Below, in pieces: positions 1,250 to 4,922 of a DNA stretch of 5,122 nt. This stretch comes from an uncultured Clostridia bacterium (lineage in GTDB: Bacteria > Bacillota_A > Clostridia > Oscillospirales > Oscillospiraceae), in NCBI GenBank assembly GCA_946410505.1, contig CAMKAP010000159.1, positions 1-5,122 of the forward strand. Direction: 5' to 3'. Each line of letters starts with the position of its first letter. Positions within the stretch are counted from its first letter, which is position 1. A program made the translations under genes and the position numbers. A model generated the notes under the pieces. The model searched no databases, had not been told where the DNA came from, and saw only the letters and a list, made by a program, of their open reading frames with translations.

Positions 1250-2983
1250 TCAGGCCTGCGGCCCGCGGTATTCCAGACACAGCATGGTCAGATCGTCAAA
1301 GGGTGAGGCTGAGCCCACAAAGGCATCCACCGCGCCGTGCACCCGCTCCAGGATCTCCTGGGGGCTACGCTCCGCCGCGGCGTTCAACGCCGCCAGCGTC
1401 CGGTCCAGACCGAACATCTCCTGATGCTCGTCGGTGGCCTCGGGCACACCGTCGGTATAGACAAAGAGCTTGGCGCCCGGCTGCAGCCGCAGCTCATACT
1501 CCGTGTATTGCACGCCCTCCATGCCGCCGACCACAAAGCCGTGCTTATCCTTCACTACTTCAAAGGCGCCGCCCGGCTGCCGCAGCACGGGGTATTCATG
1601 CCCGGCGTTGGCCGCGGTCATGCGCCCGGTGCGAAGGTCGAGCACGCCGAACCAGATGGTGATGAACATTTCCTCCGGGTTGTTGGCGCAGATCTGTCCG
1701 TTAAGCTTTTCCAGCGCCGCCTTGGGGCCGAGCCCGGCCATGGCGTGGTTTTTCAGGATCGCCTTGGTGATGGCCATGAACAGCGCGCCGGGGATGCCCT
1801 TGCCGGACACATCCGCGATCACGAGGGCCAGATGCTCCTCATCCAGCAGGAAGAAATCATAGAAATCGCCGCCGACCTCCTTGGCGGGGATCATGCTGGC
1901 GTAGACGTCAAAGTCCGTCCGCTCGGGGAAGGCCGGGAACTTGGCCGGGACCATGGCCGCCTGGATCCGGCGGGCCAGGTTCAGCTCGGTGTGGATGCGC
2001 TCCCTGTCGGTAACGGCCCGGGTCAGATTCTCCTCATACTCGGCGAGGTCCCGCTCCATGTCTGCCATCACCAGGCTCAGGTTCTCGATCTCATCGCCGG
2101 TGCGGATGTTGAGCATGGAGAAGTGGTCCGTCATCTTGGCGCCGCTCTTCTTGTCCTGCACATAAAGCTGCGCGGTCTCTGCGATGTCGTTGATGGGCTC
2201 CACCAGGGTTTTGCGCATGCGCAGGGTCATCAGCAGGCCCACGGCGTTCACCGCGATCAGCATCGCAAGGATATACTGAAGCAGGAAGGCGCGCATACCC
2301 GCGGCCACTTCCGTCATGGTGATGTCCGCCAGCACAAAGGCCACGACCTCGTCCCGCTCGTTTCGGATCGGGACGCCCGCCGTGCAGATCCAGCCGTATT
2401 TCCGGGTAAAGCCCACGTCCGCCAGTCTCGCGTCTTCATCCCGTTTCTCGTCCAGGAAGCGCTCGCTCTCAGCGCTCTTCACTTCCTCCCATTGGCCCGG
2501 GGCAAACATGGTCTGCGGATCCGGGTCCGGGTCGGCGATGTAGACAAGACGGGAGGGGTCCCGGGTGTACATGGCCAGGTAAATGTCGCTCATCTCGCTG
2601 GCGTCGCGGAAATCGCCGAGAATGCTCCGGGCGGCAAGGTAATCCGGGTCCTCCTGCAGAGCGCTGAAGCGGGCACAGTACTCGCCGGAGTCCGACGCGG
2701 CGCGCTCTTCCTCACTCATGCCGTTGTAGATATCCATAACATACGAAGCAAGGCGGTCCACCTGCACGACGCGCTGCAGCACCGAAGCGGCCGCCCTTGA
2801 CTGGAGAAAGGCCGTGGAGGTATCCCTCTCAATGAGCGCGCTCGTATAGAGGCCCAGGCCGATGGCCAGAGCGACCAGGCCCAGGACCACCGATCCCATC
2901 AGGGTAGAGCGGAACACGCGGGCGGACAGCGAATAGTGCCTCCGCTCCGTGGTCGTCATCTCTCTTATGGTTTTTTCAGGCAT
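1250..2983 (-). CDS. Membrane sensor PP2C-type phosphatase (Cache-like sensor, HAMP, SpoIIE/RsbU domain)
   Basis: 577 aa. Order of parts: short cytoplasmic N-terminus; membrane helix about 27-51; extracytoplasmic region about 52-228 ending in a Cache-like pattern (KYGWICTAGVPIRNERDEVV, 195-214, then LADI); second helix about 233-253; HAMP about 254-315, with the EP pair at 262-263 and a GDEIENLSLVMADM second-helix motif; coiled coil to about 345; SpoIIE/PP2C phosphatase 347-575. Metal-binding motifs are intact: GGDFYD (D373), ADVSGKG (D391), NAGH at 459-462, YTDG (D511) and FDD (563-564). The protein is therefore expected to be an active Mg/Mn-dependent Ser/Thr phosphatase. Such proteins usually dephosphorylate an anti-anti-sigma (STAS) partner in a partner-switching pathway, under control of an external ligand. 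The substrate and ligand are not identifiable here. The start has AGGA six bases upstream; a later Met9 is possible. The gene lies 49 nt after the second leader-peptide gene, probably in the same transcript. Confidence 0.95.
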   Translation of the reverse strand: MPEKTIREMTTTERRHYSLSARVFRSTLMGSVVLGLVALAIGLGLYTSALIERDTSTAFLQSRAAASVLQRVVQVDRLASYVMDIYNGMSEEERAASDSGEYCARFSALQEDPDYLAARSILGDFRDASEMSDIYLAMYTRDPSRLVYIADPDPDPQTMFAPGQWEEVKSAESERFLDEKRDEDARLADVGFTRKYGWICTAGVPIRNERDEVVAFVLADITMTEVAAGMRAFLLQYILAMLIAVNAVGLLMTLRMRKTLVEPINDIAETAQLYVQDKKSGAKMTDHFSMLNIRTGDEIENLSLVMADMERDLAEYEENLTRAVTDRERIHTELNLARRIQAAMVPAKFPAFPERTDFDVYASMIPAKEVGGDFYDFFLLDEEHLALVIADVSGKGIPGALFMAITKAILKNHAMAGLGPKAALEKLNGQICANNPEEMFITIWFGVLDLRTGRMTAANAGHEYPVLRQPGGAFEVVKDKHGFVVGGMEGVQYTEYELRLQPGAKLFVYTDGVPEATDEHQEMFGLDRTLAALNAAAERSPQEILERVHGAVDAFVGSASPFDDLTMLCLEYRGPQA

Positions 2984-3032
2984 GGTTTATCCTGCCCTTC
3001 TGTCATATTCGGGCGTCCGGGCGCCTGGGTCC

Positions 3033-3377
3033 TCACCGTCCGAGCTTCTGCGAAATGCACCGGCCGATCTCCGGGGCGTAAGACTGCCCCAGCTGGAGAA
3101 GTCTCTTGTAAAGCTCGCTGTTATTTTCGTCGCGGCCCGCCAGCTCCAGCAGGAAACGCAGGCCGACGCTGGCCTTTTCCAGATTGATCGCGCCGCCCGC
3201 GATCTGGTCCAGCTTCTCATCCTCCAGCGCGACGAGTCCCTTGCCGTTCAGGATGCGGTTTTCCTCCTCGTTGAGCTCCACGCCCATATTCACCAGCAGC
3301 TCGGTCAGCTCACTCACGCTGCCGGCGTTTATGATGCTCTCGGCGTTGTTCATCAGGATATTTGTCCAGTCGTTCAT
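3033..3377 (-). CDS. Small protein with double-glycine leader (putative peptide precursor 2)
   Basis: 114 aa with no membrane segment. Residues 20-62 look like the C-terminal part of Nif11-like/double-glycine leaders: VSELTELLVNMGVELNEEE, then LEDEKLDQIAGG, with the Gly-Gly pair at 61-62. The 52 residues after it (63-114) are helix-prone, contain repeated Leu positions (GLRFLLELA, YKRLLQLG), and have one cysteine (C107), four serines and no threonine. Leaders of this kind are normally cut after Gly-Gly by a C39 peptidase domain of an ABC exporter or by a dedicated protease, releasing the C-terminal part. The start is supported by GGAGG seven bases upstream (3385-3389), inside the end of the preceding gene. 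The ATG overlaps that gene's TGA by four bases (ATGA), indicating translational coupling. The post-GG part matches no product I recognise. Whether it is a bacteriocin, a signal or a structural small protein is unknown. Confidence 0.83.
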   Translation of the reverse strand: MNDWTNILMNNAESIINAGSVSELTELLVNMGVELNEEENRILNGKGLVALEDEKLDQIAGGAINLEKASVGLRFLLELAGRDENNSELYKRLLQLGQSYAPEIGRCISQKLGR

Positions 3378-3820
3378 TTTAGTTCCTCCAGCGTATATTG
3401 ATAGCCGCCGCCATCCGCCGTGCGGAGGACCCGATAGCGCTTGCCGTCTATGCTGATCTCCCGCTGTAGCGGGCTCAGCTCGTTGGCCTTCGCCGGTCGG
3501 GCGGCGTCCTGTGCCATCAGCATGGACAGGATCGACACGAACCAGGAATTGCGGTTGACCCCGTTCTGGTTGAAGAGGATGCGGCCTCCTGCCACGTTTT
3601 CCAGCTCGTCATCCGCCAGGGCGGTTTTCCCGGCGGGCTTCCGCTCCGTGTTCCCTGTGCGGACTCCGGCCTCTTCCATGGCGCGCAGCATCAGCTCCTC
3701 GTTGATCTGCGTGCCGGGCTTGGCGGCAAGCCGCGCCAGAGAGGCCTCCAGCTTCTCCCTCAGGGCGCTGTCCTGCGCAAGCTGCCGCTCCAGGTTTTCG
3801 GCGTCAATGCTCTGCTTCAT
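3374..3820 (-). CDS. Small protein with Nif11-like double-glycine leader (putative peptide precursor 1)
   Basis: 148 aa. The N-terminal half resembles a Nif11-type leader: ENLERQLAQDSALREKLEAS near residues 8-27 is the typical 'LxxxLAQDxxLRxKL' helix, followed by a second helix (EELMLRAMEEAGV, 41-53) and the motif LADDELENVAGG with Gly-Gly at 78-79. The post-GG part (80-148, 69 aa) starts RILFNQNG, has a short hydrophobic stretch (SWFVSILSMLMA, 92-103) and ends in a beta-like segment (ISIDGKRYRVLRTADGGGYQ, 122-141). It has no cysteine, five serines and two threonines, so it does not look like a lanthipeptide or thiazole/oxazole core. AGGAG lies seven bases before the ATG. It is the first gene of the minus-strand operon and overlaps the next gene by four bases. 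The leader family is a moderately confident call made by motif; the function of the C-terminal part is unknown. Confidence 0.83.
   Translation of the reverse strand: MKQSIDAENLERQLAQDSALREKLEASLARLAAKPGTQINEELMLRAMEEAGVRTGNTERKPAGKTALADDELENVAGGRILFNQNGVNRNSWFVSILSMLMAQDAARPAKANELSPLQREISIDGKRYRVLRTADGGGYQYTLEELK
3385..3389 (-). promoter_or_regulatory. Ribosome binding site of precursor 2, inside precursor 1
   Basis: Minus-strand GGAGG with a 7-nt spacer to the ATG at 3377-3375. It lies within the last codons of the upstream gene, so the ATGA overlap can work by re-initiation as well as by direct ribosome entry. This fixes the start of the 114-aa protein and suggests its output may exceed simple coupling. 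Confidence 0.75.
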
Positions 3821-3882
3821 GCTCGTTCTCCTGTCCGCCCGCGCGCGGTCAAGCGCTCGGGCCGTGTTTTCATATTATTTTA

Positions 3883-3912
3883 AATATACTATAGAAGCCC
3901 CTGCAAAAGCAA
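3883..3912 (-). promoter_or_regulatory. Candidate sigma-A-type promoter of the minus-strand operon
   Basis: On the minus strand, TTGCTT (3912-3907) is separated by 18 nt from TATATT (3888-3883), about 60 nt before the first start codon. The surrounding block is markedly AT-rich within a GC-rich window. An alternative -10 (TATAGT, 3893-3888) overlaps it but has no well-spaced -35. Exact boxes are uncertain. Confidence 0.5.
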
Positions 3913-3913
3913 G

Positions 3914-3919
3914 TATAAT
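3914..3919 (+). promoter_or_regulatory. Plus-strand TATAAT box in the divergent region (upstream candidate)
   Basis: A perfect TATAAT lies almost directly beside the minus-strand -35 candidate (3907-3912). Its own -35 position (ATAGAA at 3891-3896, 17-nt spacing) is poor. An 11-bp inverted repeat, ATCCT-C-AGGAT (3918-3928), overlaps its last two bases and could be an operator. If active, it would give the ATP-cone gene a long leader. Low confidence. Confidence 0.3.
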
Positions 3920-3967
3920 CCTCAGGATATGGACTTCCCCCATTCTTTGATACGACGGCGGACACAC

Positions 3968-3992
3968 GCGGGCCGGAAGCCCGTCTGTTTTT
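3968..3992 (+). terminator. Weak hairpin with U-run in the leader region
   Basis: CGGGC (3969-3973) pairs with GCCCG (3979-3983) around a 5-nt loop, with an extra G-U pair outside. CTG and TTTTT (3988-3992) follow, with a second TTTTT at 3998-4002. The stem is short for an intrinsic terminator. It could end or attenuate transcripts starting at the upstream TATAAT box, giving a short RNA of about 65-70 nt, or be meaningless. No riboswitch class is recognised. Confidence 0.25.
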
Positions 3993-4015
3993 CCGGCTTT
4001 TTCCGCGCGGCGGGG

Positions 4016-4044
4016 CTGGCGAATCCGGAAAGCTGTGCTATAAT
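4016..4044 (+). promoter_or_regulatory. Extended -10 promoter of the ATP-cone gene
   Basis: TATAAT at 4039-4044 is preceded by TGTGC, giving the extended -10 form TGNTATAAT. The 17-nt-spaced -35 (CTGGCG, 4016-4021) is weak, as is common when an extended -10 is present. Transcription would start near 4051, leaving about a 50-nt leader before the start codon. Confidence 0.65.
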
Positions 4045-4090
4045 TATGATAATGATCGTCACGGATCGACCGGAACAAAAACCAAATAAA

Positions 4091-4095
4091 GGAGG
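4091..4095 (+). promoter_or_regulatory. Ribosome binding site deciding the ATP-cone start
   Basis: GGAGG with a 7-nt spacer to the ATG at 4103. The frame is open back to an ATG at 3929, but that stretch crosses the promoter and has no ribosome binding site, so the start at 4103 is preferred. Confidence 0.85.
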
Positions 4096-4102
4096 ACAGG
4101 AT

Positions 4103-4366
4103 ATGAAAATCACAAAGAGAAACGGAATCATCACACTCTACGACGACGAGAAGCTCATCGCCAGCATCCTGCGCGCCAACGCCGAGACAGCGGAGACGCT
4201 GATGGACAGGAAGCAGGCCGCCGCCATCGCCGACCAGGTTTTTCTCCGCCTGACCGCGGGCAGCGAGATCATCAGAACCGACGATGTGCGCCGCTGCGTG
4301 GATGCTCTCCTCCGTGAGCAGGGCTTTACGGAGACCGCCCGGCACTACATGGAATACAGAAAATAA
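4103..4366 (+). CDS. Stand-alone ATP-cone domain protein
   Basis: 87 aa, almost entirely one ATP-cone domain. Visible hallmarks are the opening MKITKRNGIITLYDDEKL (KR-x-G then Asp-x-x-Lys, as at the N-terminus of NrdD, NrdA and NrdR cones), ILRAN at 22-26, the IIRTDDVRRCVDALL helix (56-70), and the closing FTETARHYMEYRK, the usual 'A-x-x-Y-x-x-YR' end. ATP-cones bind ATP or dATP and normally act as an allosteric switch fused to ribonucleotide reductase or to the NrdR repressor. Here nothing is fused: there is no reductase domain and no zinc ribbon. It may regulate a partner in trans, or be a small nucleotide sensor of unknown target. The gene has its own extended -10 promoter and is divergent from the leader-peptide operon. 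The domain call is secure; the role is unknown. Confidence 0.9.
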   Translation: MKITKRNGIITLYDDEKLIASILRANAETAETLMDRKQAAAIADQVFLRLTAGSEIIRTDDVRRCVDALLREQGFTETARHYMEYRK

Positions 4367-4389: not shown

Positions 4390-4446
4390 AAAGCGCAAGG
4401 CGGCGGATGGGGCGCGCCGATACGGTCCATCCGCCAGCCGCTTTTT
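4390..4446 (+). terminator. Terminator between the convergent ATP-cone and methyltransferase genes
   Basis: A perfect 9-bp stem GGCGGATGG/CCATCCGCC (4402-4410 with 4427-4435) is extended by AAAGCG/CGCTTT (4390-4395 with 4439-4444) across a small internal loop. TTTTT at 4442-4446 follows on the plus strand. The 16-nt apical loop holds a GGCGCGCC palindrome. It ends the ATP-cone transcript; the minus-strand side offers CTTTCTCC and may partly serve the methyltransferase gene, whose stop codon abuts it. Confidence 0.75.
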
Positions 4447-4922
4447 CATCGCGCCGCCTCCAGGGTCAGAAGGTAACGCTTGTTTTCGATGCCGCCGGCA
4501 TAGCCGGTCAGGCTTCCGTCCGCGCCGATTACACGGTGGCAGGGGATGAGCAGGGAAACGGGATTGCGGCCCACCGCGCTGCCGACCGCCCGCGCCGAAG
4601 TGCCGAGGCGGGCGGCCAGGCTTCCGTAGCTCTCGGTCTCTCCGTAGGGGATCTCCAACAGCGCCCGCCAGACCGAGCGCTGGAAGGCCGTGCCCCGGGG
4701 CGACAAGGCAAGCGCGGCGGCGTTCGGCCGCTCTCCGGCGAAATAGGCGTCCAGCCAGCGCCGCGCCACCCGGAGTACCGGTGTCTCCCGCTCCCGCCCC
4801 TCGCCGTGCAGATGCTGCGCGGCATGTTTCTGCCCCTCGATCACAAGGGCGGTCACCGCGCCGTCCTCGGCGGCGACCGTCAGCATCCCCAGCGGGGATT
4901 CATAGCGAATATAATCGTACAT
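4446..4922 (-). CDS. ogt: Methylated-DNA--protein-cysteine methyltransferase (O6-alkylguanine repair)
   Basis: 158 aa, the usual length for a stand-alone Ogt/MGMT. It repairs O6-methylguanine (and O4-methylthymine) by moving the alkyl group irreversibly to its own cysteine. The N-terminal ribonuclease-like domain starts MYDYIRYESPLGMLTVA. The C-terminal DNA-binding and catalytic domain (about 76-158) contains GTAFQRSVWRALLEIPYGET, the recognition helix with Arg finger in ARAVGSAVGRNP (R111, hinge N120), the active-site PCHRV (Cys128), and GSLTGYAGGIENKRYLL. All key residues are present, so it should be functional. The ATG has GGGAGG six bases upstream. It is transcribed alone from its own promoter and converges on the ATP-cone gene. 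There is no Ada-type regulatory domain. Confidence 0.96.
   Translation of the reverse strand: MYDYIRYESPLGMLTVAAEDGAVTALVIEGQKHAAQHLHGEGRERETPVLRVARRWLDAYFAGERPNAAALALSPRGTAFQRSVWRALLEIPYGETESYGSLAARLGTSARAVGSAVGRNPVSLLIPCHRVIGADGSLTGYAGGIENKRYLLTLEAAR

What the first reader, a model, noticed from the sequence alone, without database searches (positions are those of the whole stretch)
3033..3820. Tandem, translationally coupled pair of double-glycine leader proteins with unrelated C-terminal parts
Two adjacent small proteins both carry an acidic helix ending in a canonical 'E-L-x-x-V/I-A-G-G' motif (LADDELENVAGG and LEDEKLDQIAGG), yet their leaders and post-GG regions do not resemble each other. 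The ATGA overlap and a dedicated GGAGG suggest they are made together, as in two-component bacteriocins or paired signal peptides. I recognise neither C-terminal part. Motifs and overlap are seen; the leader role is family knowledge; the two-component idea is inference.
Basis: partly seen in the sequence, partly recalled or inferred. Interest (0 to 1): 0.7.

Follow-up and report, generated by a model that had tools for sequence, protein, structure and literature searches.

The report
Double-glycine export cargo pair, rumen bacterium
Two small overlapping genes encode proteins with a removable double-glycine tag of the kind read by a peptide-export pump; relatives suggest the first is a conserved secreted cell-envelope protein rather than half of a two-part antibiotic, with the second found in only a few close relatives.

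Summary
Two ORFs, P1 (148 aa) and P2 (114 aa), overlap by ATGA, have GGAGG before P2, and each carry one canonical GG leader end. GG is kept in homologues (P1 family 38 of 39 rows, one AG; P2 5 of 5 rows, 4 distinct).

The leader role is well supported. Both carry the residues at -4, -7 and -12 that a characterised C39 protease reads. All 22 genus genomes with a P1-family gene are among the 63 of 102 with an NHLM transporter, and each has a P1-family gene within about 3 kb of it.

The two-component bacteriocin idea is not supported. A P1 orthologue exists without P2, P2 was found in 1 of 102 genomes, and P1 tracks a DUF218 membrane protein. The 27 residues after P1's GG are its most conserved part. 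None of 28 P1-family stretches has a LanM or radical-SAM hit by similarity search. Neighbouring cargo often is LysM or CW_7 wall-binding proteins behind GG leaders.

Best reading: P1 and P2 are unmodified cargo of an NHLM transporter that, in these Oscillospiraceae, often exports envelope proteins. What mature P1 does, perhaps with DUF218, is inferred.

The parts
3374..3820 (-). P1: 148-aa double-glycine cargo protein ('SWF' family), including stop
   Evidence: 13 database homologues, and 26 family members from genome stretches (one identical to P0002)
3584..3820 (-). P1 leader, residues 1-79, Nif11-like helices and LADDELENVAGG
   Evidence: TIGR03798 E 2.4e-4, below cut-off; 12 of 39 family rows match TIGR03798 at E 0.1 or better; family profile hits solved Nif11 protein 9zn4, E 4.8e-5; hhalign to a chosen Nif11 set 82%
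3377..3583 (-). P1 predicted mature part, residues 80-148: SWFV helix (90-106) then strands (120-147)
   Evidence: AlphaFold2, low confidence; residues 80-106 mean pairwise identity 90% against 60% in the leader and 63% in the rest, 10 full-length rows
3536..3547 (-). SWFV motif of P1 (residues 92-95); Trp in 39 of 39 rows
   Evidence: most rows from genome stretches were picked by a pattern that contains this Trp
3033..3377 (-). P2: 114-aa double-glycine protein, including stop
3192..3377 (-). P2 leader, residues 1-62, LEDEKLDQIAGG; probably a diverged Nif11-type leader
   Evidence: hhalign 94.9% to six Nif11-type leaders, a set found with the P1/P2 profiles; no hit to TIGR03798 itself
3036..3191 (-). 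P2 predicted mature part, residues 63-114, predicted helical, less constrained than its leader
   Evidence: (low confidence)
3385..3389 (-). GGAGG Shine-Dalgarno for P2, inside the end of P1
3374..3377 (-). ATGA stop/start overlap P1-P2
   Evidence: same overlap in L001
1250..2983 (-). SpoIIE-type phosphatase with two predicted membrane segments, same strand, 49 bp after P2
   Evidence: PF07228 E 2.4e-49; hydropathy; beside P1 also in L001/L021 and L048
1..1182 (-). DUF218 membrane protein (six hydrophobic segments plus DUF218), cut by the window end; frequent partner of the P1 family
   Evidence: PF02698 E 1.4e-24

Best explanation
P1 and P2 are two co-translated cargo proteins of a double-glycine (C39-peptidase, NHLM-type) ABC exporter. 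Their leaders are read by the transporter's C39 domain, cut after GG, and the unmodified C-terminal parts are released outside. P1 belongs to a conserved family of Oscillospiraceae cargo marked by an N-x-x-SWFV-like motif soon after the GG. In 16 of 22 genus genomes a family member sits between the transporter's second ABC gene and a DUF218 membrane-protein gene, and many loci also carry cargo with LysM or CW_7 wall-binding domains. So mature P1 most likely acts at the producer's own envelope, probably with the DUF218 protein. P2 is an extra cargo protein of a few close relatives. Shown by sequence: GG, C39-recognition residues, family, linkage, no LanM/radical-SAM hit. Inferred: cleavage, export, envelope site, DUF218 partnership, any control by the SpoIIE phosphatase.
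For: GG in 14 of 14 rows of the close P1 alignment, window included, 38 of 39 rows of the wider family with one AG, and 5 of 5 P2 rows, 4 distinct. Hydrophobic residues stand at -4, -7 and -12 in 39 of 39 and 5 of 5 rows (my pattern forces -4 and -7, only -12 is free); mutation of these impaired cutting by the C39 protease LahT150 (PMC6363468, passages). 22 of 22 genus genomes with the family are among the 63 of 102 with NHLM_micro_ABC1 over cut-off, 0 of the 39 others (Fisher p 4e-6, genomes not independent). 23 of 23 P1-family genes in stretches with the transporter share its strand. DUF218 (over 200 aa aligned) is 57-96% identical to the window's in 18 of 25 P1-family stretches, against 35-40% in 12 of 40 other NHLM stretches. 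51 of 51 LysM ORFs matching my LysM pattern in 65 stretches have a GG before the domain (44 by pattern, 7 by eye). LanM and radical-SAM queries hit 0 of 28 P1-family stretches but 4 of 40 other NHLM stretches (queries and hits confirmed by Pfam). By pattern 33 of 35 C39-ABC ORFs keep Cys, His and Asp.
Against: No transporter lies in the window, and its own genome is not held. In sister genome RUG11929 the two NHLM transporters are on other contigs, and there, as in G648, the family member near the transporter is a paralogue, not the orthologue of P1. P1 scores below the Nif11 cut-off and P2 gives no Nif11 hit. 19 of 40 other NHLM stretches show no LysM, CW_7, SGSF or P1-family cargo by my patterns, some being short contigs. 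The SWFV helix is not significantly amphipathic in P1. Structure models are low confidence. 7 of 25 P1-family stretches show no DUF218. No experiment shows export.
Confidence: 0.65

Rival explanations
1. Two-component (class IIb-like) bacteriocin: both mature peptides act together on competitors' membranes.
For: Tandem GG-leader genes with a 4-base overlap and a dedicated Shine-Dalgarno; a weak sub-cut-off hit of P1 to the class IIb model (11.5 against 21.5 bits).
Against: P1 orthologue without P2 in G648; P2 in 1 of 102 genus genomes; P1's post-GG part under stronger constraint than its leader (dN/dS 0.09 against 0.22, one pair); the helix is not amphipathic in P1. No dedicated search for an immunity gene was made.
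Confidence: 0.07
2. Modified RiPP precursors: Nif11-like leaders guide an enzyme encoded elsewhere in the genome.
For: Nif11-like leaders; Trp in all rows and mostly Asn/Asp and Ser around it after the GG; a DUF7005 protein with an HExxH motif lies in several loci of the paralogous type, and relatives of it also lie in three stretches (L074, L109, L111) that have a radical SAM.
Against: No LanM or radical-SAM hit in 28 P1-family stretches (tblastn, three queries only; YcaO and other enzymes not queried; a HemZ-like radical-SAM ORF, by my reading, about 7 kb away in L020, was not hit); no Cys after the GG in P1 (P2 has one); a 69-aa post-GG part is large for a RiPP core.
Confidence: 0.13
3. Secreted signal: mature P1 is sensed by the neighbouring SpoIIE-type sensor phosphatase, coupling export to gene control.
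For: SpoIIE phosphatase in the P1 locus of the window, RUG11929 and G648 and a SpoIIE hit in 14 of 62 genomes' NHLM stretches; the L020 one has a Cache sensor domain.
Against: No SpoIIE hit in 18 of 25 P1-family stretches; a 69-aa part with a second conserved element is long for a pheromone; DUF218 is the more constant partner.
Confidence: 0.12
4. The GG is not cut; these are cytoplasmic proteins.
For: No transporter in the window; no export experiment.
Against: GG (once AG) is kept when the leader shrinks from 79 to about 21-35 residues; linkage to C39 transporters.
Confidence: 0.03

Closest known systems
NHLM/NHLP export cassette (TIGR03794/03796/03797) with Nif11- and nitrile-hydratase-type leaders (Haft 2010, PMC2887384: passages and one section read)
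   Same: Leader type and GG site; C39 ABC over its NCBIfam cut-off in 3 of 3 relatives scanned, second ABC in 2 of 3.
   Different: That section treats the precursors as modified natural products; here P1-family stretches show no LanM/radical-SAM hit and many carry LysM or CW_7 cargo. The HlyD-like protein is short and below the TIGR03794 cut-off (2 of 2 scanned).
LahT/LahA of Lachnospiraceae C6A11 (PMC6363468: passages read) and PCAT1
   Same: C39 recognition residues at -4, -7, -12 and GG; the L007 transporter matches the solved C39 domain 6mpz (E 1e-72) and full-length entries such as 4ry2 (the name PCAT1 is recalled).
   Different: LahA peptides belong to a lanthipeptide cluster with diverse cores; the P1 family has a conserved stretch after the GG.
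Class IIb two-peptide bacteriocins (features recalled)
   Same: Two adjacent GG-leader genes.
   Different: P1 and P2 do not co-occur reliably, and the neighbours differ.

Membership tests
Nif11-like leader family (TIGR03798) | Score over curated cut-off (32.3 bits) | tested here: not met
   P1 21.3 bits; P2 no hit
Nif11-like leader family (TIGR03798) | Homology to Nif11-type leaders below the cut-off | tested here: inconclusive
   P1: TIGR03798 E 2.4e-4, family profile to 9zn4 E 4.8e-5. P1 82% and P2 94.9% by hhalign, but against six leaders that came from hits of the P1/P2 profiles; four of the six were scanned against TIGR03798 and one is over its cut-off
Double-glycine C39 substrate | GG at the leader end with hydrophobic -4, -7, -12 | tested here: met
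   (pattern fixes -4 and -7; -12 free); requirement from PMC6363468 passages
Double-glycine C39 substrate | Cut by the C39 domain | not testable with these tools
   needs the bench
NHLM export cargo | Linked to NHLM ABC1/ABC2 | tested here: met
   family level: 22 of 22 genus genomes. The window's own locus is not linked in its sister RUG11929, where the transporters lie on other contigs
RiPP precursor | Modification enzyme nearby | tested here: not met
   0 of 28 P1-family stretches with a LanM/radical-SAM hit (YcaO and others not queried)
Class IIb two-peptide bacteriocin | Two obligate partner peptides | tested here: not met
   G648 lacks P2; P2 in 1 of 102
Class IIb two-peptide bacteriocin | Antimicrobial activity and immunity protein | not testable with these tools
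   needs the bench; no immunity-gene search was made

The most novel reading that the evidence does not exclude
In Oscillospiraceae the NHLM 'bacteriocin' exporter has, in many lineages, become a dedicated secretion route for unmodified cell-envelope proteins (LysM, CW_7 and the SWF family of P1). The SWF cargo is the secreted partner of a DUF218 membrane protein, and some loci are controlled by a SpoIIE phosphatase or an ECF sigma factor.
Probability: 0.45. Interest if true: 0.7.

Novelty: new variant of a known kind. Interest (0 to 1): 0.52.

Why it matters
NHLM cassettes and Nif11 leaders are usually read as signs of bacteriocin or RiPP clusters (the NCBIfam names say so). If many of them in gut and rumen Oscillospiraceae move wall-binding and envelope proteins instead, genome-mining counts are inflated and a non-Sec protein export route has been overlooked. 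The P1 family offers a compact test: one cargo, one transporter, one membrane partner.

Tried and rejected
Viral contigs: 56 stretches matched a pattern, none encoded a P1 relative, so a phage origin was not pursued; the plasmid and phage record collections were not searched. Promoter scan of 2900-4110: none found; one terminator-like site, against 1.5 expected. Two weak P2-like hits in the genus (G614, G583) are Nif11-type leaders with Cys-rich cores, not P2. Of four weak P2-like hits in the family search, G058 is a Nif11-leader peptide; G157, G077 and G086 were not resolved. The weak hits of the wider profile (16 of 38 genus genomes; 5 of 11 family genomes) match mainly the leader end and were not counted as P1 family. 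G093 is a Nif11-leader peptide beside a radical SAM and not counted. Of 27 P1-profile places in the genus, 26 gave a family member and one, L070 in G604, did not. The amphipathic-helix idea was tested and not supported for P1; of six helices one (G619) was below 0.05 against shuffles. No fold search was run because both models were of low confidence. DUF218 was missing in 7 of 25 P1-family stretches, some of them cut by contig ends.

Limits of the counts: only one transporter stretch was taken for each of the 40 other NHLM genomes, though many have more than one; G634 was left out. LysM, CW_7 and P1-family ORFs were classed by my own patterns, made from examples, which can miss other kinds. 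The P1-family rows were picked with a pattern holding GG and the Trp (L064 by eye).

Literature: ten searches. None of the papers in the listings shown joins NHLM export with LysM or CW_7 cargo by title or abstract start; some searches listed only part of what they found. The library lacks most subscription journals, so this is not proof of absence.

Full report
What is there. The minus strand of the window reads P1 (3374-3820), P2 (3033-3377), a SpoIIE phosphatase (1250-2983) and a DUF218 membrane protein (1-1182, cut by the window end). P1 and P2 overlap by ATGA, with GGAGG seven bases before P2's start. Each has one canonical GG leader end, and these are the only two of 35 ORFs of 40 aa or more in my list that match a strict motif, against 1.4e-4 per shuffled ORF.

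Relatives. A search of 5.8 billion proteins gave 13 P1 homologues and 4 for P2, one of them the window's own. GG is invariant in the P1 alignment of 14 rows, including three members without the long leader, and in the 5 rows (4 distinct) of P2. In 10 full-length P1 rows residues 80-106 are the most conserved part (90% mean pairwise identity; leader 60%, rest 63%). In P2 it is the leader (81%, post-GG 63%, 4 rows). dN/dS against RUG11929, one pair, agrees: P1 leader 0.22 and post-GG 0.09, P2 leader 0.07 and post-GG 0.29.

The same locus lies in MAG RUG11929 (Ruminococcaceae, L001, 89% identity). That genome has two NHLM transporters elsewhere, both ABC1 proteins over the NCBIfam cut-off. One is followed by two GG-leader proteins with CW_7-type repeats, a DUF7005 protein, an ECF sigma factor and a P1 paralogue (Pfam was run on the first of the two repeat proteins).

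The wider family. With the P1 profile there are matches in 22 of 102 genomes of the genus, 3 of 200 of the family (one of them only a Nif11 leader) and 1 of 394 of the order, RUG11929 itself being in each count. A second profile gave 38 of 102, of which the same 22 are strong (E below 1e-10), and 11 of 400 in the family, 6 strong, 3 of these outside the 102. All 22 have NHLM_micro_ABC1 over cut-off; 63 of 102 genomes do.

I fetched stretches around the family members and around one transporter in 40 of the other 41 NHLM genomes; G634 was left out. In 12 of the 22 genomes the order is HlyD-like, C39 ABC, second ABC, P1 family (within 140 bp), DUF218 (within 170 bp), on one strand; in 16 of 22 a family member lies within 170 bp of DUF218 and downstream of the second ABC. 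Three genomes outside the genus have the family 36-119 bp from DUF218 too (by ORF and match ends). DUF218 identity to the window's separates the groups: 57-96% in 18 of 25 P1-family stretches, 35-40% in 12 of 40 others, the rest having no match over 200 aa.

Other cargo. By pattern, GG proteins with CW_7 repeats appear in 26 and with LysM in 24 of 62 genomes' stretches, one or the other in 37; 19 of the 40 genomes without P1 family show no cargo that my patterns know. Pfam confirms examples (CW_7 E 8.4e-26 and 6.6e-29, LysM 3.5e-14 and 4.6e-15). All 51 small LysM ORFs found by my LysM pattern have a GG before the domain: 44 by pattern, 7 by eye. For CW_7 31 of 34 do; of the other three I judge one cut by a contig end and two read in a wrong frame. 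LanM or radical-SAM queries, confirmed by Pfam with their hits, hit 0 of 28 P1-family stretches and 4 of 40 other NHLM stretches; those four have no LysM, CW_7 or P1-family cargo by my patterns. So the genus seems to hold both RiPP-type and envelope-type NHLM loci.

Leaders. P1 and P2 both fit the C39 recognition rule (L-12, L-7, V/I-4), tested by mutation for LahT150 (PMC6363468, passages). P1 is near Nif11-type leaders by TIGR03798 (sub-cut-off) and by the solved protein 9zn4. For P2 the evidence is a profile comparison with leaders found through the P1/P2 profiles, so it is weaker. Neither passes TIGR03798. AlphaFold2 puts the P1 GG in a low-confidence coil between two helices, not inside a fold (mean pLDDT 61).

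Pairing. G648 carries a P1 orthologue (58%) followed 42 bp later by SpoIIE and then DUF218, with no room for P2 and no P2 match elsewhere in that genome. P2 was found in 1 of 102 genus genomes. So P2 joined, or survived, in few relatives, and the family's more lasting partner is DUF218. For the window's own P1, P2 and the SpoIIE gene stand between them.

Conclusion. The leader reading holds; the bacteriocin-pair reading is not supported. The best account is unmodified envelope cargo of an NHLM exporter. Cleavage, export, site and function remain untested.

Noticed in passing
L020:15641-16645; L050:3029-4015; L080, L081, L076, L085: GG-leader proteins whose mature part is a LysM domain or two CW_7 repeats, beside NHLM transporters.
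   Followed up: yes
L077:7852-8289; L080:9366-9818; L082:14163-14585; L085:6267-6722; L099:14600-15064: Another GG cargo family with a shared SGSFxSxTGTxLNL-like stretch after the GG; not identified.
   Followed up: no
L007:12515-14722; L049, L055, L056, L068, L152-L154: Cassette of DUF7005 (HExxH motif), ECF sigma gene and a P1-family member; in several a short GG ORF overlaps the sigma gene.
   Followed up: partly
L007:6410-6826: The HlyD-like protein is 138 aa and matches only positions 1-90 of 421 of TIGR03794.
   Followed up: no
L023:651-6000: Three Nif11-leader peptides followed by a LanM-type (DUF4135 plus LANC_like) and a radical-SAM protein.
   Followed up: partly
L074, L096, L109, L111: NHLM stretches with a LanM-type or radical-SAM protein, so RiPP-type loci exist in the same genus.
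   Followed up: partly
L001:172-450: Small GG-type protein with a Cys4 zinc-ribbon-like tail (my reading) near the P1-P2 locus of RUG11929.
   Followed up: no
window 4103-4366 (+) and 4446-4922 (-): A stand-alone ATP-cone domain gene and an O6-methylguanine methyltransferase gene.
   Followed up: no
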